A stretch of DNA of 64,000 nucleotides from Ascidia mentula (taxonomy: Eukaryota > Chordata > Ascidiacea > Phlebobranchia > Ascidiidae): positions 9,979,001-10,043,000 of the forward strand of contig OX387197.1 in assembly GCA_947561715.1 (NCBI GenBank). Direction: 5' to 3'. The position numbers and the translations under genes are program-made. This document shows, piece by piece, positions 3,501-56,165 of the stretch. The notes under the pieces are model-generated. The model saw nothing but the letters and a program-made list of their open reading frames with translations, did no database searches and was not told the DNA's origin. The number at the start of each line of letters is the position of its first letter. The stretch's first letter is position 1.

Positions 3501-6500
3501 CATGAACACACAATTTTTCAAGGCACGTAGCAACAATTAAAATTGCTTTATTTTACGCAAGGCAAAAGTTGCATTAACGGTTAAAATTTACCTATACACG
3601 AACATCTCATGGTTTTCATGCTGATTAAATGTATACAACAGTCACATTAGCTCCATTTGAGCACCCAATAGCGAACGTATATAGACCACTTATAATATGC
3701 GTGACTATAGAGAAGAAAGCTTAATTATCCCCAAAATAGAAGGTAGATGATTATCACGATGCACCGAAAAGGTAAGTTGACATAATAATCTACGCGCGAC
3801 CAGGTATCGACCTTTACCACGAATGCTCGTGTGAAACAGAAAGACATGGATGGGGAAGTGGATTTCTCCCCTTCGAGAATGTTTATGTGCGCAGGCGATA
3901 TCTGCTTGCTTTAAGATTTCGGGGTGCGGTAAACGACGCGAAACAGAAATTGCCGCACAAAACACCTGTCGAGAAAGTCTCGGAGCTGCTAAATTTGAGA
4001 GTTCGCCAAACTCGACATTCCAAATGAAACCGAAGGACAGTAAGACGAAACGACAAGGCGAAACACAGGTTATGAACGCGGTATTAAGCAGTAACCTGCA
4101 ACCCACGACGTAGAGACCGCGTCATCATAATCGACCGCGCGTTCTATAGGCAGAAGGACAGCGGAAACGCTTCTATTTACCAATGTAGTAACAAACATGT
4201 ATGAATAGAGCTCGCATGTGGTACTGAGCAGCTCGTGCATGTGTAAACGCAAGCTTCTTCTTCCGCGTGTCACCGACCCCTCCGAACGCGGAGGCTGGGT
4301 GCGTTGCGCAACGCTTAAAACATAAACATGTCCGGGTTGTTTCAACTTTGCCAAGGGACTTTGAATCTTAAGCATAAGTTACAAGATGCTTGTTTTTATA
4401 ACGCCCCAATGATATTATTTAAACTCATAACTGTCTCACGACCTGCACGACGCTTTAACGCACAATTTATCGGCGTGACATTTTCAGCAGATTGGATAAC
4501 ATAAACGTGGCAACTTGACACTTAGAGGTGGGCACTTTGCTTACATCTGATTGCAACTACAGTATAGGGGGGAGAAATTTAATAACGGACGAGGGTGTCA
4601 CTAATGTCTCTAAACACTGTAATCCTTCCGAGGACACGTATCAAGACATGCGATAGTGGCCAACACAACGTGTTGCAAGGGTTAATTTATGGTGTGTGAA
4701 ACATTGTATACATCGGTAGGAGGCGTTGAGGTTCACATCAATACTATCAGAGGTTAATTGAAACTTTGCATCGACCGCAGACTTTCGCTTTGCTAGCCGT
4801 AAAGATTACAAAATCATTATAGCCTCACTTTTATTTAAATGGTAATGCATTTTTAGAAAAGAGGTTGATGCAATTCTCTGTTCCGTTTACGTGTTAATGG
4901 CGAAAGTTGACAATTTTTTTCGGGACAAAAAAACTCGCTTTTGTCACTCGGCCTATGGCATATTATGATGGCAAAAACGTATACCTCGAGTGCCGAGAAG
5001 GGGTTTGCGAATTCCGCTTCGTCGTCGGGTTGATCTCCGTTCGCCGAAAGCGCCATGTTAGCTGCGTGAGTCAGGAGCTCGCGGGAGATGTCGGAGAAGC
5101 TTCTAGAAAGACGGGAGGCCGAAGACGGACGACGAGTCTGCGCGTGCAAAGAACTGGTGACTAAACCTATCCTGCACCAGGTAATGCGTCACGTGATGTA
5201 CGTGTGGCACACTATTAGACGGAAAACGGGTTTCTTCCGGGGTGGGTTACCTGAGGTCGATGGTTCTCGGGATCTTATGGTATACACGGCTTACTATGTG
5301 CATTTTTATATCCACACAGTCTATACATTTTGGCTATTTAAATTCAAAATATTCACCCATCGACCCCGGTGGGAACATCAAACAATAGTTAGAACTCTTG
5401 TTTGTGTAAAGGTTTCTTCTGACAGTCTTATGGGGACAAATACTTGGTATCTGATTTTTAACAAGTTATATATGAGGAAATAAAACAATTTGCTGTTAAA
5501 AGTTAAATAAAGCTATGGGGCATTGTTGGCGACTTGCTTGACCTTGCGGTTAAACTAAAGGGGTCTGTATATTATCAAAACAATTCGATAGATTCGCCAG
5601 CACTATTCTCCCATTCTTTTACTGATCGTAAATATCTTACTGAGATAGTTTTGTTTGAACAAAGCAGTAAAAGAGAAATGTTCAAACAACTACATTTTTC
5701 CTTCGCCTACCTCAGCGAAACCGCGAAGATATTTGAAAATTACCCAAAGAACAATAAGTCGCAACGCGAAAGTGAAAGAAATACGAACCCGTGGTGATTT
5801 TGGAGGTTTGGAAGGTGACATGATAGGGCTTCTGTTGCTGGCACCTTGGGAAGTTCTCATCTTGGAAGCCGAATATCGACTGCGGCTCACTTCGTCAACT
5901 GTCGATAAGAGAACAAGTGTGTTTGTAGTTTTCAAAGGTTGTGGAAAGGTTCTGTGGTTGTGTACCGTGACCTGACTTATCATTTTAGGCGCTGTGGCGG
6001 CAAATGTCCTTTATGCGACCTCGGTTTAACGTAAAATCGGTGGAAATGTGTCGCATTCGCTTTGTGATGCTGCTTGTTAATCGATCGCAGATAGGTCACT
6101 GGGACAAAGCAAACCTTGAGCTGTTCCGGGCCAAAAAATGGCATTTGGTGCTTGGCCACAATGCAGGAGGCTATAGGTACAGAAAGGATTTCGGGGCCAA
6201 TCTAAAAATTATTAAAAACTAACCAGAATGATTTCCATATAATTTTCGGGAAAACCCTTAAACCTTAAGTAAACCAAGGGGTTGGGCTGCAAGTACGCGA
6301 ACAGAGGTGCAAGTACAAAAGGTCTCACAAACGTGGTTTCGCGAGTACGACACAATGATCGCACGCACACGCTACACAAGCGTGTTTATATACCGCGGCT
6401 CGCAACTTGCTCATAATTCGTGGGCGTTGGCGCTCGAATCACTTCAACAAACACCAGCACTTTGTAAAAGAAACAAAGCCACAAGGCTGCTGTTGCAAAT

Positions 6501-13572: not shown

Positions 13573-13579
13573 ACAAAGG
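13573..13579 (+). repeat. Target-site duplication, left (ACAAAGG)
   Basis: Seven bases directly before the element's terminal CACCCCATTAG. They are repeated exactly after the right terminus at 19922-19928. Confidence 0.75.
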
Positions 13580-15470
13580 CACCCCATTAGTCGACAATTA
13601 GTCGTTAGATAGCGCTCGTTAGATGACACAATTAGCGATTTAAAGCGGGAAAATAGAATCTATCGCTCTATTGTTGGACGCTATCACCGTTTCGTGTTCT
13701 ATTTTTTGCTAATGGTCAACGGTCATATCTGTGCTCTGTGGATGTGTAATGCAATAATATTGGCGATGAATTAATTCAGGTAATTCAACCCTTAAATTAA
13801 AATAACAGATATAACGTGGAACTGGCAAGTATAAGAGCGCATAAACCATGTAAAAAATATACATGGTATTCTCATGTATCGACTGTTTCACCTCGTGATA
13901 GGGCACTAACATTTTCATTGGAAAATATAAATCAACTTCCTGGAAAAGTCATAGGTAGCTTAAACTGCCATATGGAGGATATTAAAGAAAGATTCCAGGT
14001 ATATATGTATCTACTTTTATTGTTATTGTGCTGAAAAGAGTTGGGATTGACACTACATTGCAACTGAGTGTATTTTTTATTACAATTGAAAAAAAGCATT
14101 TTTGCTACTCTTTCAGCCTATGTATGGTCAAACAAGGGGCCAATAATGTGTCTCACAGACCAACAGTCTGCAAATAGAGAGTTGCAGCCCAAATTTGAAT
14201 CATAAAACCATAACCATCTATCCACTGGGGTTGCTAATTAGATGTAAATGCAATGATGTTTTTTTACAGTATCCCAATGTTCACATGTGCGAAAGTCTTA
14301 GTGTTGGCAATATTGCAGAACAGTTAGTTAATTTTTCTTATTGTTAACCTTTGTAATATGTAGGTCACCATCAATTTTGACAATAGTTTGTGATGGAAAC
14401 GTTGTTTGGAGCTGCATTATGTTTGTTCTTCCTTAAGCATCAGCTGTTTTGGGCCTGTATGGACAAGAACAAACAAGCTTAGAAAATTGTGGTAATTCTG
14501 TTGCTAAAAGTTGTAAACTAAATTTGATATCAGTACCTCATAAAATAAATTTACTGTGCATGGCTTGATATTTTTTGCGAACTACAATTGGTATTCAGCC
14601 TGGCATAATTGTGGCCTTGGTTTATTTCCAGGTGGGATTGTGATAGGTCACTAATTTGTGCACGATCATCCTGTGGAAATATTTTGTTTTATTGGTAGTT
14701 TTTGTTGTATATTTTGATACTTGAGGCAAATATGATTTTACACCTTGAGGAAGCCTTGTTGAATAACAGGCGAAACGTCGGTGAATAAAGTTACGTTTTA
14801 TATATGCCAGAAGAACAGATTATTAAGTTATGATTTTACTATTGCACGGATTGGATCAATTTTGAGTCTTATATTAATTAAATTTTTTTTATGATGGCTA
14901 TGAGCCAAATGATGTAAAAAATATGTTTTAGGAAACACGTGGGATGCAAGCATTTCTTAGAAAATGCTGTAGACAACAAAGAACAGCCACCAGCTATATT
15001 TCACTCATTGGTAAGTGTGCATTGAAATGAGCTATGTTGGTACATGAGCAAGGTTAAGTAAAAATTGGAGGGCTTTTTAATCCATAGTATCCTAGTTTTT
15101 ATACTATACACCAATATTGGAAAAAAATCATGTGTATTTTGTGCTACTAAACAAATGTAAAAACAATATACACAAGAAATAAAATGGCATGGGCACCGAT
15201 AAAACCACAAGGTTTATTTTCAGGTGGTCAAGCAATAGATGGTCAACTACAAATATAAGAAGGAAGGTTCAGTAGAAAATTTAAATGGAAGTGTGTTCCT
15301 GATGCAGAATATTCGATAATTTTTGCAATTTATGTGTAGTGAAAAATACCAGATGTAACTTCAAGAACAGCTTTTCCACAAGTAGTTCAGGCCAACTAGT
15401 AACATGAAAGCATTGAAGGAAATGGGAATTATAAAGCAGGATTTGTACCAAAGCTTTTAAATGAATGTGA
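13580..15470 (+). repeat. Left inverted arm of the transposon
   Basis: This arm carries, reading inward, an open segment ending at 13999 just before a donor-like CAG/GTATATATG. A second open segment at about 14271-14342 (YPNVHMCESLSV...) follows an acceptor-like TTTTTTTACAG. Further open pieces occur near 14364-14436 and 14448-14572. These look like decayed exons of an element-encoded gene. A hammerhead-like module at about 14742-14830 is present in this arm but not in the other. Confidence 0.7.
14742..14830 (+). repeat. Dispersed module with hammerhead-like core (copy 1)
   Basis: The module reads TTGAGGAAGCC, an AT-rich loop, AACAGGC, then GAAACGTCGG and a conserved tail. GCC..TGTT pairs with AACA..GGC. 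This resembles stem II plus the GAAAC strand of hammerhead ribozymes found in Penelope-like elements and retrozymes. The CTGATGA strand is degraded, so catalysis is unlikely. The same ~85 bases recur inverted at 33460-33545. Confidence 0.5.
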
Positions 15471-15989
15471 AAAAAAACATACTAATGTGTGTGTTTAACT
15501 GCTCTTCGATGTGTACATGCAAAACAGATGTATGTGATATTTTATTTCCTGATAGTGCAACATTTGAATGTAGTACTGTAATCTGAGGATAAGAATTTGT
15601 GTTAGTTGTATTATTGTAATTGTGCCTTCGCTAATTTTAAAGCAGTGTTTAAAATTAGTTTGTTCCTCTTTCAGACGTGCATTTGTATTGATTAGCAGGA
15701 GAAAATTCATTTCAGTTTACATCTGTTTCGGCAGTGACATGTTTGCAGCTTTACACTTGTTTCACAATAAATCATTTTGACTACTAAACGTTGTTGCTTT
15801 ACAAATTGGATAAAACAAACACTGGACAGAAAAGTAGAATGTATTGGCCCTACCAGTACCAACGAAAGTGACAGTGTAACACAAATTATTTCTGCATATT
15901 ATTTTCATAATCATCATTGTTATCGATAATCACGTCACAAACAACAACAATAGACACACAAAGGATGTTGAAGTAAAGATTTTAATGTG
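15471..15989. other. Unpaired spacer in the transposon
   Basis: Lies between the left arm and the tandem repeat array. It is A+T-rich. I see no gene or repeat here. Confidence 0.4.
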
Positions 15990-17135
15990 GTTTGTAACTT
16001 CGCAGTTCGTACTAATCCCCGAGCATCGAAAATAAAGCACCCCAAAATCGCTCACCTCATTTGTGAACAACGCAAAAGAATAATGTTATTTTATGCAAGC
16101 GACAAAAGCGCGCAGCATTTGCCTACAGCCCACCGAAACAGGCTAACCCTAAATGGTCATGCCCCTTTATGCAACCATGATGTGACACTCTAGTTTTCTT
16201 GTTTCCTACTCGACTGGCTTGAAATTGTTAACACATGAACTACAAGGTAATTCGAGTTGTCCTACCAAACCGTTTTCGTATAAACGCTGTTAATTTTATG
16301 CATGAGACAGAAGCGCGCAGCACTTGCTTGCTGTCTGCCGAAACAGGCTAACCCTCAATGGTCATGCCCCTTTATGCAATCATGATGTGACGCTGTAGTT
16401 TTATTGTTTATTAGTCAATTAGCTTGAAACTTTCAACACATAAACTACAAGGTAATTCGAGTTGTCCTACCAAACCGTTTTCGTTTAAACGCTGTTAATT
16501 TTATGCGGGAGACAGAAGCGCGCAGCGCTTGCCTACTGTCTTCCGAAGCAGGCTAATCCTCAATGGTCATGCCCCTTTATGCAACCATGATGTGACACTA
16601 TAGTTTTCTTGTTTATTACTCAATTAGCTTGAAACTTTCAACACATAAACTACAAGGTAATTCGAGTTGTCCTACCAAACCGTTTTCGTTTAAACGCTGT
16701 TAATTTTATGCATGAGACAGAAGCGCACAGCACTTGCTTGCTGTCTGCCGAAACAGGCTAACCCTCAATGGTCATGCCCCTTTATGCAACCATGATGTGA
16801 CGCTATAGTTTTCTTGTTTATAACTCAATTAGCTTGAAACTTTCAACACATAAACTACAAGGCAATTCGAGTTGTCCTAACCAACAATTTTTATTTAAAC
16901 GTTCTCAATTTTATGCATGAGACAGAAGCGCGCAGCGTTGCCTACTGTCTTCCGAAGCAGGCTAACCCTCAATGGTCATGCCCCTTTATGCAATCATGAT
17001 GTGACACTATAGTTTTCTTGTTTATTACTCAATTAGCTTGAAATTTTTAAAACACAAACTACAAGGTAATTCGAGTTGTCCTAATAAGCCGTTTTCATTT
17101 TAATTCCGCAAATTTTATGCAGGAAACTGAAGCGC
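15990..17135 (+). repeat. 205-bp tandem repeat, about 5.5 copies
   Basis: The landmark ATGCCCCTTTATGCAA recurs at 16159, 16364, 16569, 16774 and 16978, a period of 204-205 bases. Each unit also contains a GATGTGAC block, an ATTAGCTTGAAA block and ATTCGAGTTGTCCTA. The first and last units are the most diverged, as expected for an array homogenised in the middle. It lies in the unpaired centre of the transposon. Confidence 0.9.
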
Positions 17136-17934
17136 ATGAACACTTGCCCATTGTCCCTTGCTTATCACGTAAACCATAATTTACAAAAAAATAGGAGTTG
17201 TTCAGTCAACAGGTTTCACTGATACCAATGGCGTCGCAACAGCCAGTGCTGGGAAATTCTGTGTATATAATATTCGAAGACCCAGGCACAATTTGATGAA
17301 GATTTGAACACACAACAATATCGCTCGATTTTCTTGTTCAAATAGAAAGCAGCGTCAGCGATACTAAACAACAGTTGCACATATTATAAATTTACGAAAC
17401 GACAAAAAAGGGTTAAAAACCTTGCCGGCAAAAGATTTTAGGCACGTTTTCCGAAGCATTTTTAACATCTGTTGACAACAAAAGCACGGAGTAAGCGTGC
17501 AGAATAGCAAATGCATTAAACATGTAAATAGACACCGAAAAACGAAACCTATTCAATAAAACAAAATGCCAATTTCGACGAAAATTATTGTTATTGACCA
17601 GTAGTGGGATTCTTTCACTATGCCATAGGTTATATACGAGTTCTAATGTATTGTCTCTGCACAATACGTTGTAAACACACGTGCTCCTAAGTTGTAAGCT
17701 ATCAATAGCATGTAATTAGCAGTCAGAATACAATACATAAAGTGAAACATAGGCCTGTACATACGCTTCCTAACCGGGATAACTGATTTACGGAGGTCAT
17801 TACAATTTCAAGAACAGGTTTGCAGGAATCGGCTTAATCCCACCACCACTACTGCCACATAAACAACATAAAGTAAATACTCATTACGCATACAGTAGAA
17901 CTCGGTTAATCCATTGGGTTGTGGGAAATTCACA
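17136..17934. other. Unpaired spacer in the transposon, right side
   Basis: Lies between the tandem array and the right arm. It is A+T-rich and the short minus-strand frame at 17413-17664 has no recognisable motif. I see nothing else. Confidence 0.4.
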
Positions 17935-18052
17935 TGCATTTGAAAGCTTGGTACTCCTCCTGCTTTACAATTCCCATTTCCTCCATTGTTTTCATGTTAA
18001 TTGTTGCCCTGTGCTGCTTGCGGAAAAGCTGTGTTTGGAGTTGCAGCTGGTA
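17930..18052 (-). pseudogene. C-terminal remnant of an element-encoded protein
   Basis: On the minus strand a 40-codon open stretch ends in TGA and contains KQHRATINMKTMEEMGIVKQ. It is Lys/Glu/Gln-rich and looks like the helical end of a protein. The matching place in the left arm (about 15370-15470) is recognisable but diverged. Upstream frames in the arm contain stops, so the gene is broken. The family is not recognised. Confidence 0.4.
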
Positions 18053-19921
18053 TTTTTTTAATATGATTTGAATTGCCAAATTATGAAATATCTCGCCTCA
18101 GGGCACACTTCATTTCAAATGCTGCTAAACTTCCCTTCTTATATTTGTAGTTGTGTGGCACGGGCTTTCAGCTAGCCGACCATCTATTGCTTGACCACCT
18201 AAAATAATTAGTGTTAAATACAGTGGGATTAATAAAGGATACCTGACTCGATAACCTATGGTTTTATCAGTGCCCATTTCTTTGTGTTTTGTTGCGCAAA
18301 ATACACATGATTTTATTTCAATAGAGGTAATTTAACTTTGTAGCAACATAGGTTTTTTATTTTTTACTTCCACCAGTATGTGAAATATAGTTGGCACTTG
18401 ATTGTGGCTCTTCTTTCTTGTCTACAGCACTAGATCAGTATTTAAAAAAAAAATGCTTCCATTTGAGCTTTTCTTTCCCCATGTTTCCTTAGACATTAAT
18501 TCCCTGCCAAACATGTTTGCAAAAAGTATTTGAACATGTGCATAAAATTATAATTTGTGAAAGCTAACATTATCAAAAACCTATGCTGTTAACAAGTAAC
18601 GAATTTTTCTAATTTTTGTTCAGGTATTAGATTTATTTAAATATATATTTTACTACATATTAGTTGATTAGCAAAATTATACGTATTTACAGAAAAGAGG
18701 TTAACAAAATGGTAACTTTAAATTAACAAATTCGGTTCACAGCCATTGTATGAAAACTCAAAATCTATATGACAGTAAAATTATATTTTCCTTTAAGTAA
18801 CAAAAAATAGCAATAGAACAAAATACTTGTACAGTATTATCGTGCACAAATTAGAAAAAAAAATGAACCAAGACTTGGCCACATTTATGCCAGTCTCAAT
18901 AACAATTGTACTTGTACCACGCAAAAAATATCAAGCCTAAATTATACATGCACAGTAAATATGTATTAGGAGGTACTGATATCAAATTTACATTACAACT
19001 TTTAGCTACATAATTACCACAATTTTCTAAGCTTGTTTGTTCTTGTCCACCCAGGCCCAAAACAGCTGATGCTCAAGGAAGAATAAACATAATGCAGCTC
19101 CAAACAACGTTTCGATCACCAACTATTGTCAAAATTGATGGTGACCTACATATTACAAAGGTTAAATAGTAAGAAAAATTAACTAACTGTTCTGCAATAT
19201 TGACAACACTAAGACTTTCGCATATGTAAGCATTGGGATACTGTAAAAAAACATCATTGCATTTACATCTAATTAGCAACCCAAGTGGATAGATGGTTAT
19301 GGTTTTATGATTCAAATTTGGGCTGCAACTCTCTATTTGCAGACTGTTGGTCTGTGAGACACATTATTGGCCCCTTGTTTGACCATATGTGGGCTGAAAG
19401 AGTAGCAAAAATGCTTTTTTCCAATTATAATAAAAAATACACTCAGTTGCAATGTAGTGTCAATCCCAACTCTTTTCAGCACAATAACAATAAAAGTAGA
19501 TACATATATACCTGGAATCCTTCTTTAATATCCTCCATATGGCAGTTTAAGCTACCTATGACTTTTCCAGGAAGTTGTTTTATATTTTCCAATGAAAATA
19601 TTAGTGCCCTATCACGAGGTGAAACAGTCGATACATGAGAATACCATGTATATTTTTTACATGGTTTATGCGCTCTTATACTTGCCAGTTCCACGTTATA
19701 TCTGTTATTTTAATTTAAGGGTTGAATTACCTGAATTAATTCATCGCCAATATTATTGCATTACACATCCACAGATATGACCGTTGACCATTAGTAAAAT
19801 AGAACACGAAACGGTGATAGCGTCCAACAATAGAGCGATAGATTCTATTTTCCCGCTTTAAATCGCTAATTGTGTCAGCTAACGTGCGCTATCTAACGAC
19901 TAATTGTCGACTAATGGGGTG
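17935..19921 (-). repeat. Right inverted arm of the transposon
   Basis: Inverse of 13580-15470. The outermost open segment (19476-19694 on the minus strand) differs from the left copy by only a few residues. Towards the centre the match is patchy, with insertions. It contains the open remnant at 17930-18052. Confidence 0.75.
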
Positions 19922-19928
19922 ACAAAGG
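19922..19928 (+). repeat. Target-site duplication, right (ACAAAGG)
   Basis: Exact repeat of the seven bases at 13573-13579, directly after the terminal GGGGTG. Confidence 0.75.
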
Positions 19929-31230: not shown

Positions 31231-41972
<10,742 letters not shown>

Positions 41973-51440: not shown

Positions 51441-54400
51441 TCACCAACATTTGACTTTATCTTGCACTGATAACATTATTTCCTTTGCCACTCTGTCTGC
51501 TACATTGTCTCTAATGACCAGTTTTTCCATCTTAAATTAACATGGCATTAAATGTAAGGAAATATTGCATTTTAACACTTGGTTGCAAGACTAACCTGGT
51601 TTTGTAACTCAGATAAGCCCTTGGCCAAGTCCTGAAGCCCAACATTAGAAATGTCACAATCAGCCAAGCTAAGCTTTTTTACGTTATGTAGTGACTTGAT
51701 CAGGGCAGCTGTTCCACCATCAGCAATTGCATTCCCAGTTAGGATTAGGTTGGTCATCTGGAAGTTGTAATTAATTTTGTCAACAACAAATCAATCTTCC
51801 TATTGTTTAATAATTTAAATTGCCAGTTGGCCCCTTTCTCTATTCAATTGAGGGTATTGTTTTGGGCAGTTTGCGTCATTGATGGAATTTAATTTTTAAT
51901 TTAATAAATATATGATAACCATGAAAAATCACCTTAATTCCACAAACTACAAACTGATGTTACAAAATTTCACGCTATAATCAAGTTGACCATTGTGCTT
52001 GGTCTTAGTTTTCTTTTTATTTATCTGATAGTTGAATGCAGGCAGCCAATGGTAAGCAAATACTGTCAAAATAGAGTAAACTTGACCAAGATTAAGCACT
52101 TTTAATTGTACTCCTTTGCATAAATTTGCGCATTTGGACATTAAAAATTTTGGCCCTTGTTTGCCAAACAATCTAACAGCAACCTACAATGAAGTCTATA
52201 GACAAGTAAGGTTGCATGTGGTGCGTCGTATTGTCATATGTTTGGACCATGATGTAGTTAACCAAAAAAATATATTCCATTACCTGTACATATTAAAAGT
52301 ATTTACAACAGTTTCTCACCGGTTCTTCGAGTAACTCCAGAGCTGATGATAGAGAAGGTATTGAATCAGAGGTTATCTTGCAACGATGCATGTCAAGTGA
52401 ATGGACATTCTGCAAACATGTTGCCATCGCTTTAGCCCCCGAGTTACCAATTTCATTCACACCCAAATTGACTTCTTTCATCTAAGAAGAAAATTTTTTT
52501 TTTTTGCAATAAGAAAACTTTGAACAAAATTTTTATTGGAACAGCAGTTATCGTAATGTGATTATTAAAGTTAAATTTAGCCAAACCCATAGAAGAACCG
52601 GCACGATAATTATGTTACCCGCTTACTGGTGTGGTTAATCTTGCAATAGCTGATGCAAGTTTGTCAACCTTGGTTACAAAGCAGTTTGCGATAATGAATG
52701 TTGATATTAAGTTGATGCAGTCTGCCAGTAAACAGAGGCCATCATCACCTAAAGGACATCCTCGGAGATCCAAGATAGATAGCTATAAAATAAGCATGTC
52801 TTGTATCGGCCCAAAGGTTAACAATATGATTAAAAAAAACCTGATTCTTGCTTTCCAGAAGTGCACTTCTAATTGACCTAGCAGTGTTAAGAAATGTTTT
52901 TGTGTCCTCACTTGGCCGAATACAACATTTGTCAACATAAGGAATGCATTTTTGTAGATAAGCTGCTTGTTCATCACACCAACTGAGTAGTCTCAGGTTT
53001 GAGATCTGAATATGCAGATACAATGGGTAAAATCACAAAAAAACAGTGGTATGAAAAATTTTCTTACCTCAATTTTGTGCTTGGCGATATAACCTCCAAG
53101 GGTTTGCAGAACAGTACCAACAGCGTGCAACTTGACATTTCCAATCTTTGGAAGAAACTGTGAATGTTCGTATACCATAAACATGTTACTAATATCGGAG
53201 GAAAAAACCAAATCCATCAGATTGCATTCTTCAGGCAAATTTTTAGCCACGTTCATGTGAGTTTCACGACAGCCAAGTTCATTAACACATGTAAAAAGGT
53301 AAAACCATTTTTGGATGTTTTTGTTGCTGCCAGAATGTCCAGCAAGCAACTCCTTCGCTTTCTTTACAGCAAGTGTATCCAAATATTCCTTTTTCGTTTG
53401 CCATTCACAAGATAAGGTACATCTGAACAAGTTGTTTACATTGCTGAACACACTTTCCCTACACAAGCCAAAAGTGAACTTGAGTATATTTGCCAAGTCA
53501 CCGGACTGAAAAGCATCTTGGAGGAAAGACTGGAAATCTGTTACATTCATCAAAACTATTAATTTGAGAGCAACCAGCAGCTCCTGCCAGGAGCGATGCA
53601 CAAAAAAACTAACCCTGTCCTGCCACATAATGGTCATAGCAAGATTTCTGTCTGACCCTGAAGAAACAAATGGGTGCTGTGTTGTGGGTGGAATTTTAAA
53701 TCGTTGTAAATCTTCCTGAGTAAACGTTGCCTTTTTGTTATTAAAACCATACCAAGCCAACTCAGCTAGCTTTACAACAAAGTCAGCTTCATTATGAGAA
53801 TTGTGCTGAGAACGGATGTAGGTGTTTAGGACTGCAATATAGACATCTGTCAGTGTAACACTTTCTGCATTTTCAGCAATCAAGAGGTGATTCAGGATCA
53901 TGTGCAAATTGACTGGAACACCACAGCATTCAAGCAGCTCATTATTGTTCGAAAGAGTACGTTGGACTTCTTCATATTTGCTGCCACAAATCTGCTTTGC
54001 AAGCTTCTCCTGGGCACATGACGACAATCCAAGGATCTCCACAACAAATTTTGGTCGGTATTCCGGAATGGCATCTAGAAATTCAGTGATTCTTGAAGTG
54101 ATAAGCTTGGTAGTAAATGGCATAATAGTTCCTTTCAAGATATTAAATATAAAAGCCATTGGTACTGCTTTTCCATAGGGAGATTTACATTTGTAGGCTG
54201 TTTGCAGCAGTATTGTGCCAGCTTCATCAAGCCCATCTATGATTGCCACTGAATTCCGGTCTTGCAGAACATGCTGGATTAAAGCAAGTTTTTCATCTTC
54301 ATCCAGAAGAAGGCTTCCATTAGCAATGAGTGGAAAAAATAGAAGATCAAACAGAGTGGTTTCTTCATTTAGGTCAATAGATCCTATCTTTATGTAAAAT

Positions 54401-56165
54401 ATGTATGATGCATTTGGTAGTATCTTTTTCTGCATAATATTGTTTAGGACAATCTTGGTAAATGTTGTTTTACCGACACCAACTGTCCCAACAACAGCAA
54501 CATAACCTCCAACATTTTCACTGTTATCAGAACATTCAAAAGTAAATATGTTTTCAACAGTTATGCCAACATTGTGGTAATTTTCTTGATCCAATAGATC
54601 AGCCAATTTTTTTCGGTTTGCTTGTGAATGGTTTTCTGCCTCAGCCACACCCCCAGTATATCTAACCAGCACTAAATCAACTGGATCTACAGGCTGGCAA
54701 TACTCTTTTCCACACTTTTGTTGCGATATCATGTTGGCATGAAAGCGTAACTTTTCCTCAATTGTATCACCTGTAACAAAAGGTTTTGTAAATCAAGAGT
54801 GACTTTGTAGCTGATGTAAATGCGAAAGTTACAAACCTTGGTGGTTCCAGTTACACTCTTCTTTATCATTTTTATCAAATTCTGGCAAATTTGAGATTTG
54901 TGGTGCTTGCAAGTTCAGCTTCTTCAGCTCTGCAACCATTTGTGCAATACCTTTTTAAATATGGAAGTTTTGTAATACAACTTGCCAGTTCTCAATGTTC
55001 AAATTAGTGAAAATAACATACTTAATTTGTTTGATTCTTTCCAGAACTTCATCATACGATACTGTTTCTCAGCAAAATTTTTGTAGTTAAGATTAATTGG
55101 AGTCACATGATGATTCAAAAGGTTAAACTTTTCATTCACAATTTGGTTCCACCACATTTCATTACAATTGTTTTGACAGAAGCTGTATATAAACCAAGAT
55201 TCACTTCTATCTGAGATGAACAGAAAGGGCTGTAGAATTTTTTTAAGATTAGCGAACACACTATTACTTTTCAGCATTAGTTTTCGAGTTTTTAGCAGTT
55301 CATCAACTTTAGGGTTACGAGTTCCTTTGTAGATTTCTTGTGTTACCAGTTCAAATAAGTCTTTGCCATCTATTTCAAAAACTATAAACAAGAAACTTAC
55401 ATTGACATACATATTAAAAGTCCTTGATACCAAACAAGCGAAAAAAATAAAAATCAACATTCAAAACACAATACCACATTCATAGTAAATGAAAAAAATC
55501 AATCGTAGTTTCAGGTATTAAGGCACATGCTAAAGTAAATCTCTAATGTCCTAATCGAAGCAAATAGAATGGTATAGTCAAACTCCAATATTAACATGCA
55601 ACATAGTTAATATGTGTGGTAGCCTATTTTCGAATTTTTTTATCATGGGACAAAAACTTCAATGTACTAAACCATAACATTTTTGTGTGATTGCAGTTGG
55701 TAACATTATCACTGGCACTGGGAATTTTGTTCCGACTAATACATCCTGGTGATGTGAAAATTTCTGTTTATCTACCGGTTTCTGGCTCAATAACCTTTGT
55801 AGATTTATCAGTGCCCATACCATGTTGCACATAACTTTTTTTATTTATTTATATGGTAGTTTGCTACATAAGATAAAATGATTTCGCTTTGCAGTGCACC
55901 AGTCTTTATAAGATCATATCTACTTACACTTGGCTGATATATCTTCCCACAAAGAAAACATGTCCAAAGTGGGGTTCTCCAAACATTTGTCCAAAATACA
56001 TTCATCGAAGCCTAGTTTTCGCAAAAATTCTGGTTTCAAATCAATGCTCAAAGCTTTCCATGCTTTAATAAAAGCACATTTCGTTTGTTTCATTGCTTCA
56101 GTTTCACCCTTTAGCAATTTTCTCCTTTGGGTTGCAACATCAATCTTCTCCAAGTTTCTTTTCAT
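51441..56165 (-). CDS. NACHT-LRR (NLR) receptor with death-fold-like N terminus
   Basis: Exons 5' to 3': 56165-55928, 55381-55022, 54950-54837, 54770-53068, 53005-52841, 52782-52627, 52481-52320, (52183-52082 optional), 51757-51596, 51530-51441. In-phase product 1049 aa, or 1083 with the optional exon. The N terminus (LKPEFLRKLGFDECILDKCL, then SLWEDIS) has the spacing of a death domain. The 567-codon exon encodes the NACHT ATPase: Walker A GTVGVGKTT (332-340) and Walker B SVAIIDGLDEA (411-421). The 3' exons encode ribonuclease-inhibitor-type LRRs (MKEVNLGVNEIGNSGAKAM; MTNLILTGNAIADGGTAAL), two of them exactly 162 nt and phase 0/0. NLRs are cytosolic immune sensors that oligomerise on ligand binding. 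ATG 56165 is provisional. The region between residues 80 and 200 is unrecognised. Confidence 0.85.
52082..52183 (-). other. Possible extra NLR exon
   Basis: On the minus strand a 102-nt open stretch lies between acceptor-like TTGTAG and donor-like CAA/GTTTAC, in phase 0 at both ends. It encodes VAVRLFGKQGPKFLM... ending QLKVLNLGQ, which resembles half of an LRR. It fits between the two 162-nt LRR exons without breaking the frame. It may be a working, optional or decayed exon. Confidence 0.4.

What the first reader, a model, noticed from the sequence alone, without database searches (positions are those of the whole stretch)
13580..19921. Transposon built as an inverted dimer with 2-kb arms around a satellite array
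Seen: matched termini, a 7-bp direct duplication, inverted similarity over nearly 1.9 kb per side, and a 205-bp tandem array only in the middle. Both arms carry the same inward-reading open pieces, so each arm looks like a copy of one shorter element fused head to head. Near-identity at the tips and divergence inside suggest selection or gene conversion on the ends. I cannot match it to a named family.
Basis: partly seen in the sequence, partly recalled or inferred. Interest (0 to 1): 0.72.

Follow-up and report, generated by a model that had tools for sequence, protein, structure and literature searches.

The report
Inverted-dimer KDZ transposon with satellite core
This is a real mobile DNA element, repeated in an apparently animal genome, made of two facing, gutted copies of one half of a rarely described kind of transposon around a short tandem array; a longer relative that carries transposase exons is in the same genome.

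Summary
Window 13580-19921 is a 6342-bp transposon with a 7-bp target duplication (ACAAAGG), about 1.9-kb inverted arms and 5.1 copies of a 205-bp unit. Six full-length copies, at separate sites, share this plan; all 5 with two intact ends have 7-bp duplications. So the dimer itself moved.

It can be placed. A related 11.9-kb element, 3 copies, carries KDZ (Kyakuja-Dileera-Zisupton) and CxC transposase exons; its 205-bp array lies between that gene and a convergent second gene. Both window arms keep remnants of the same two KDZ exons, read inward, across the same internal deletion. Each arm is therefore a gutted half-element, not a shorter whole element, and the deletion came before the two arms parted.

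Tips are homogenised between arms: of 37 fixed left/right differences in the outer 1160 bp, 1 lies in the first 700. The array is the best-conserved shared part (71% identity, 3 gap columns, against 54-60% beside it), which hints at a cis function.

KDZ ancestry is shown by homology. Mobilisation in trans by a KDZ transposase, and how the dimer formed, are inferred. It is a new variant of a known kind: a foldback-like KDZ derivative.

The parts
13573..13579 (.). left target-site duplication ACAAAGG
13580..15471 (+). left arm: terminal inverted repeat plus internally deleted 5' half of a KDZ-type element, gene remnant reading inward
13580..14280 (+). left tip, about 700 bp, alike with the right tip (1 fixed left/right difference among 6 copies)
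14742..14829 (+). 88-bp insertion of a dispersed genomic repeat, left arm only, shared by 5 of 6 full copies
14971..15073 (+). remnant of the first large coding exon found of the KDZ transposase gene (72% to the relative)
15214..15445 (+). remnant of the last exon of the KDZ transposase gene; about 2.75 kb of the gene between the two exon remnants is missing
15441..16084 (+). end of the gene and 3' region homologous to the KDZ relative, leading into the array
16084..17135 (+). 205-bp tandem array, 5.1 copies; also between the convergent genes of the KDZ relative
17160..17930 (.). spacer found at full length only in the 6 full copies of this family; origin unknown
17929..19921 (-). right arm: inverted second copy of the deleted 5' half, ending before the stop codon of the gene
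18069..18235 (-). last-exon remnant of the KDZ gene in the right arm
18328..18486 (-). remnant of the same first large exon of the KDZ gene in the right arm
19222..19921 (-). right tip, alike with the left tip
19922..19928 (.). right target-site duplication ACAAAGG

Best explanation
The window element is a non-autonomous DNA transposon derived from the KDZ lineage. Shown by sequence: its arms are two inverted copies of one half of an element like the 11.9-kb KDZ element of the same genome (TIR - transposase gene - 205-bp array - convergent second gene - TIR); both arms lack the same roughly 2.75 kb of the transposase gene, so that deletion is older than the split between the arms; the inner arms differ by 20-30% or more while the outer 0.7 kb is alike; and the dimer, with an 88-bp repeat already in its left arm, gave rise to at least five full copies. 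Inferred: it is cut and pasted in trans by a KDZ transposase recognising the matched tips (CACCC...GGGTG), giving 7-bp duplications. Inferred: the inverted copy arose by template switching during repair of an excision gap, or by joining of two related copies. Inferred: arm-to-arm gene conversion keeps the tips alike. Inferred: the array has a cis role, because it is the best preserved part shared with the transposase-bearing family.
For: Six full copies with the same plan at separate sites; 7-bp TSDs in the 5 with both ends intact, the sixth lacking 13 terminal bp. KDZ relative: PF18758 matched by 4 of 4 KDZ-region exons among 8 frames given, 2 of the 4 over Pfam's cut-off; CxC1 over cut-off in another. 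It has 160-bp TIRs beginning CACCC and 3 copies, one with a perfect 7-bp TSD TTTATTG. Both arms align to the same two exons in the right order at DNA level (E 8e-8 to 2e-12), the right arm also by weak peptide matches (E 6e-4 and 0.003), and the arms align to each other across the deletion junction. Fixed left/right differences: 1 in columns 1-700, 36 in 701-1160; variants held by exactly one left and one right arm: 3 same-copy, 0 cross-copy. 88-bp insertion in 5 of 6 copies, left arm only. Nearest array unit lies in another copy for 24 of 32 units. Array 70.7% with 3 gap columns between families, against 53.6% with 195 for the 3' region and 59.6% with 31 for the last exon.
Against: The window element has no KDZ catalytic domain, and no copy of its own family with one was found: all 6 PF18758 hits in the assembly fall in the 3 copies of the relative. 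Its TIR shares little beyond CACCC with that of the relative, so mobilisation by that transposase is unproven, and I did not test whether the relative's gene is intact. TSD is 7 bp; the Zisupton value reported is 8 bp (PMC12730594, passages). Two of three copies of the relative lack a matching TSD of their own. The right spacer (17160-17930) has no identified source. The same-copy sign of gene conversion rests on 3 sites, 2 of them in L012; a few three-sequence patterns mix copies.
Confidence: 0.86

Rival explanations
1. A Galileo-like or other P-superfamily element: long TIRs, internal repeats and 7-bp duplications, moved by a P transposase.
For: Galileo has long internally repetitive TIRs, repeats of about 210 bp in one subfamily and 7-bp TSDs (PMC3573991 and PMC2775673, passages). 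P transposases exist in this genome: 6 PF12017 hits.
Against: None of the 6 P loci (about 3.2 kb each, so only about 1.5 kb either side of the match) shares DNA with the element at E 0.01, while gene remnants, 3' region and array are all shared with a KDZ element. Galileo repeats lie in the arms; here the array is central.
Confidence: 0.04
2. The ancestor simply had long TIRs (about 1 kb), and the inner similarity comes from two independently deleted genes of one convergent pair, not from an inverted duplication of a half-element.
For: Tips are near identical for about 0.7 kb and about 90% or more to about 1 kb, and similarity falls sharply inside. The relative also has two convergent genes.
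Against: The inner arms carry the same two exons of the same gene and align across the same deletion junction. The relative's second gene is a different gene, and its TIRs are 160 bp (one copy read in full).
Confidence: 0.08
3. The tips are alike through purifying selection on transposase sites or a common bottleneck, not through continuing gene conversion.
For: Blocks inside the outer arm (around element 405-500 and 583-625) stay conserved in a 65%-identical relative, which suggests cis constraint. Most homogenisation predates dispersal of the 6 copies.
Against: Copies vary at the tips, and variants held by exactly one left and one right arm are same-copy in 3 of 3 cases.
Confidence: 0.3
4. 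The dimer formed by recombination or joining of two related, already diverged copies in inverted orientation, followed by loss of the inner ends, rather than by template switching in gap repair. The inner divergence would then be older than the dimer.
For: Exchange between copies is plausible here: two KDZ copies on C1 lie in opposite orientation and share one 7-bp flank crosswise. The strong inner divergence between arms needs no long life of the dimer in this reading.
Against: Nothing in the junctions favours it. The right arm stops inside the last exon and is followed by DNA of unknown source. The junctions are too old to tell the routes apart.
Confidence: 0.35

Closest known systems
KDZ (Kyakuja-Dileera-Zisupton) DNA transposons, CxC-bearing group (e.g. 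KDZ1-3 of Cryptococcus, PMC12810828, passages)
   Same: The relative in this genome has KDZ and CxC1 matches, about 12 kb length and a 160-bp TIR (reported KDZ1-3: about 9-11 kb, 139-241-bp TIRs, CxC1). The window element carries remnants of that gene.
   Different: The window element lacks the catalytic domain, is an inverted dimer with an array, and makes 7-bp TSDs (reported 8 bp for KDZ1, 4-8 bp for KDZ2/3).
Galileo (P superfamily, Drosophila)
   Same: Structurally like it: long TIRs, internal tandem repeats, 7-bp TSDs, copies without the transposase.
   Different: Different transposase lineage; Galileo repeats lie in the arms, not between them; no shared DNA with the P loci here.
Foldback elements, e.g. 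Tetris of D. virilis
   Same: Non-autonomous, long inverted arms, element-borne repeat of about 220 bp (PMC4079207, passages).
   Different: Tetris has 8-9-bp TSDs and repeats inside the TIRs, and its authors found no transposase-bearing partner; here a transposase-bearing relative is identified and the array is central and shared with it.
Zisupton (fish; original paper not read, cited)
   Same: Same superfamily of transposase domain (PF18758).
   Different: 8-bp TSDs; no inverted-dimer form in the passages read.

Membership tests
KDZ DNA transposons | KDZ transposase domain (PF18758) encoded | tested here: not met
   Not in the window element: the genome search with PF18758 hits only the 3 copies of the relative. 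Met in that relative. So the window element is filed as a non-autonomous KDZ derivative, not as a complete KDZ element.
KDZ DNA transposons | Homology to a KDZ element outside the catalytic domain (gene ends, 3' region) | tested here: met
KDZ DNA transposons | CxC-type cysteine cluster N-terminal to the domain | tested here: inconclusive
   Present in the relative (CxC1 1.8e-8); that part is missing in the window element
KDZ DNA transposons | Terminal inverted repeats | tested here: met
   160 bp in the relative, in the reported range of 139-241 bp; far longer in the window family
KDZ DNA transposons | 8-bp TSD (Zisupton; 4-8 bp reported for KDZ2/3) | tested here: not met
   7 bp in 5 of 5 full copies with two intact ends, in 2 MITE-sized copies and in 1 of 3 copies of the relative; within the 4-8 bp reported for KDZ2/3
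KDZ DNA transposons | Moved by a KDZ transposase | not testable with these tools
   needs an excision or transposition assay
P superfamily / Galileo | P transposase shared | tested here: not met
   6 PF12017 loci, no shared DNA within about 1.5 kb either side
P superfamily / Galileo | 7-bp TSD (Galileo) | tested here: met
   length alone does not discriminate
Foldback (structural class) | Very long inverted arms with internal repeats, no intact transposase | tested here: met
   but the repeats lie between the arms

The most novel reading that the evidence does not exclude
The 205-bp array is a working cis part of this KDZ lineage, for example internal transposase binding or a barrier/terminator between convergent transcription units. 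It was kept with its period while the transposase gene decayed, and turning the element into an inverted dimer gave a symmetric arrangement (tip - arm - array - arm - tip) that improved transposition by a KDZ transposase.
Probability: 0.25. Interest if true: 0.6.

Novelty: new variant of a known kind. Interest (0 to 1): 0.45.

Why it matters
KDZ transposons seem little described in animals in the papers I saw. This gives a KDZ element with defined ends in an apparently animal genome, a 7-bp duplication, and a foldback-like derivative whose history can be partly ordered: internal deletion, then two arms, then spread of the dimer with like tips. It fits the view, read, that foldback structure evolves independently in different transposon lineages, here KDZ. 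The array held in both families is a concrete, testable candidate for an internal cis element.

Tried and rejected
P superfamily: 6 PF12017 hits, no shared DNA in the 6 stretches of about 3.2 kb. Coding in the outer arms: no Pfam match over a cut-off for the 4 frames given, and conservation with the 65% relative L027 in several frames at once, so read as non-coding. Other ends of single-ended copies: 13 of the 20 stretches hold one end only (L014-L024, L027, L028); 7 of these 13 were searched for a partner end with the same 7 bp and none was found (L016 had one exact GG-plus-7-bp string without a terminus). The other 6 were not tested that way. A full copy of this family with its own transposase: not found; all 6 KDZ domain hits are in the relative. 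Literature: searches did not show an inverted-dimer KDZ element in the capped lists (10-20 papers each) and passages seen; this is not proof that none is in print. Papers seen as passages only: PMC12730594, PMC9297572, PMC3706591, PMC12810828, PMC3573991, PMC4079207, PMC2775673, PMC12477816; others as listing only.

Full report
What is there. The element occupies window 13580-19921 (6342 bp), with ACAAAGG directly repeated at its borders. Element 1-1892 is an inverted match of 4350-6342, 77% over about 2030 columns; the three longest blocks are 97%, 94% and 98% complementary. A 205-bp array of 5.1 units fills 16084-17135. The open pieces that both arms share show no sign of being coding.

It is a family that moved as a dimer. 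A search of the genome (195.8 Mb, 79 contigs) with the first 154 bp gave 31 matches, 2 of them the window element's own tips. I fetched 20 stretches: 5 hold full-length relatives (L009-L013), 2 hold MITE-sized copies (L025, L026), 13 hold one end only. With the window copy there are six full copies. All six have two inverted tips, the array, the right spacer and the right-arm gene remnants; L010 has lost the left-arm gene remnants, the other five keep them. Five have both ends intact and each has its own 7-bp duplication: ACAAAGG, TCAATTT, ATATAAG, GTGGCGG, GATTATT. The sixth, L012, lacks 13 bp of one end. The two MITE-sized copies (210 and 102 bp) also have 7-bp duplications. An 88-bp piece of a dispersed repeat sits in the left arm of 5 of 6 copies and in no right arm, so those five most simply descend from one dimer that already carried it.

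The family it derives from. A search with one array unit gave 65 matches, all in copies or fragments of this family or of a second one 70-75% alike (the search scores only the best candidates, so counts are lower bounds). The second family has three copies: C1:23772907-23784804, C1:22273885-22285782 and C71:14013194-14025399, 11.9-12.2 kb, with 160-bp TIRs, 99% alike, that begin CACCCGATTC; one of the three was read in full. Upstream of its array lies a multi-exon gene. Of 8 frames given to Pfam, the 4 from the KDZ region hit PF18758 (E 5e-11 to 0.007; two over the cut-off, two below), another hits CxC1 (1.8e-8, over cut-off) and CxC2 (1.4e-5, just under it), and the other three gave nothing or weak matches to unrelated families. 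A genome search with PF18758 finds these three copies and nothing else. Whether the gene is intact was not tested. On the far side of the array a second gene reads towards it; one exon matches the GTF2I-like repeat (6.7e-7, over cut-off) and another weakly an HMG box (0.0025, below cut-off). One copy has a perfect 7-bp duplication, TTTATTG; the other two have none of their own.

What the arms are. Both arms of the window element align with the same two exons of the KDZ gene, in the same order, reading inward: the first large coding exon found and the last exon (DNA, E 8e-8 to 2e-12; weak peptide matches in the right arm). The part between, about 2.75 kb in the relative, is missing in both, and the two arms align with each other across that junction. 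The internal deletion is therefore older than the split between the arms. The left arm runs on through the gene end and 3' region into the array, as in the relative. The right arm stops before the stop codon and is followed by about 770 bp found at full length only in the 6 full copies. Each arm is thus half of an element, with one terminus, and not a complete shorter element. The inner arms differ by 20-30% or more: either the dimer is old, or two already diverged copies were joined.

Tips and array. In the 600-1160 segment the arms fall into a left type and a right type, 96-99.8% alike within type and about 90% between types; L011's left arm is an outlier near 77%, which I put down to an insertion of about 430 bp there. 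The first 600 bp do not clearly separate by type. Of 37 fixed left/right differences in 1127 usable columns, 1 lies in the first 700 and 36 in the rest. Variants found in exactly one left and one right arm are from the same copy in 3 of 3 cases (two L012, one L011). Three-sequence patterns are mixed: two sites group both L012 arms with L011's right arm, one both L011 arms with L012's left arm, one both window arms with L009's left arm. This fits arm-to-arm gene conversion, mostly before dispersal; constraint on the tips may add to it, since outer blocks persist in a 65%-identical relative. For 24 of 32 complete array units of this family the nearest unit lies in another copy, so the array predates dispersal; the 8 others, in L011 and L013, point to later local duplication. 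Complete unit number varies from 2 to 9 (the relative's units did not pass the length filter there). Between the two families the array keeps 70.7% identity with 3 gap columns and 1046 aligned positions. The neighbouring 3' region keeps 53.6% with 195 gap columns and the last exon 59.6% with 31; three shuffled array controls gave 39.5-43.2%. The array is the best-preserved part of those compared, although homogenisation among units could also slow its drift.

How it most likely works. Inferred from anatomy: a KDZ transposase acts in trans on the matched tips, and the dimer is cut and pasted. The inverted copy may have arisen by template switching in repair of an excision gap; joining of two related copies cannot be excluded. 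No assay was possible, the tips of the two families share little beyond CACCC, and the family's own transposase source was not found.

Comparison. Published KDZ elements with CxC1 are about 9-11 kb with 139-241-bp TIRs and 8-bp (KDZ1) or 4-8-bp (KDZ2/3) duplications (PMC12810828, passages); Zisupton makes 8 bp (PMC12730594, passages). Pristionchus Zisupton copies gave no detectable duplication (PMC9297572, passages). Galileo (PMC3573991, PMC2775673, passages) and Tetris (PMC4079207, passages) are structural parallels in other or unknown lineages. I file the window element as a non-autonomous, foldback-like KDZ derivative: a new variant of a known kind.

Noticed in passing
C1:22273885-22285782 and C1:23772907-23784804 (L035-L039): Two near-identical KDZ copies in opposite orientation, 1.5 Mb apart, lack their own 7-bp duplications but share TCCTTTT crosswise (left flank of one, right flank of the other). 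This is half of the exchanged-TSD pattern reported for Galileo inversions; the other pair of flanks does not match. Possible inversion or assembly join.
   Followed up: partly
L035:6385-6579 (-) and the frame at 1609-1899 from the right end of the KDZ relative: The relative's convergent second gene has a GTF2I-like repeat (Pfam 6.7e-7; weak PDB matches to TFII-I domains, best E 0.033) and an HMG-like stretch below cut-off. A GTF2I-like domain in a DNA transposon may bear on the origin of the TFII-I family.
   Followed up: partly
window 14742-14829, 33459-33557: Dispersed repeat of about 88 bp, many copies 96-100% alike, often in inverted pairs a short distance apart; the second window copy is 89% alike.
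   Followed up: no
L018:1-6752 (C67:12390600-12397351): Long array stepping by about 138 bp whose units are self-complementary (inverted self matches at successive steps).
   Followed up: no
L044:2922-6836: A fragment of this family is interrupted by another element with 580-bp inverted repeats, 94% alike.
   Followed up: no
L029-L034: Six P-element transposase matches, the best with an open frame of 479 aa.
   Followed up: no
window 52993-54792 (-): 599-aa open frame with a NACHT domain.
   Followed up: no
C71:13854350-13870171 and C2:19178838-19181132: Further diverged relatives of the KDZ element, one with its left half apparently present twice; no KDZ domain hit there.
   Followed up: no
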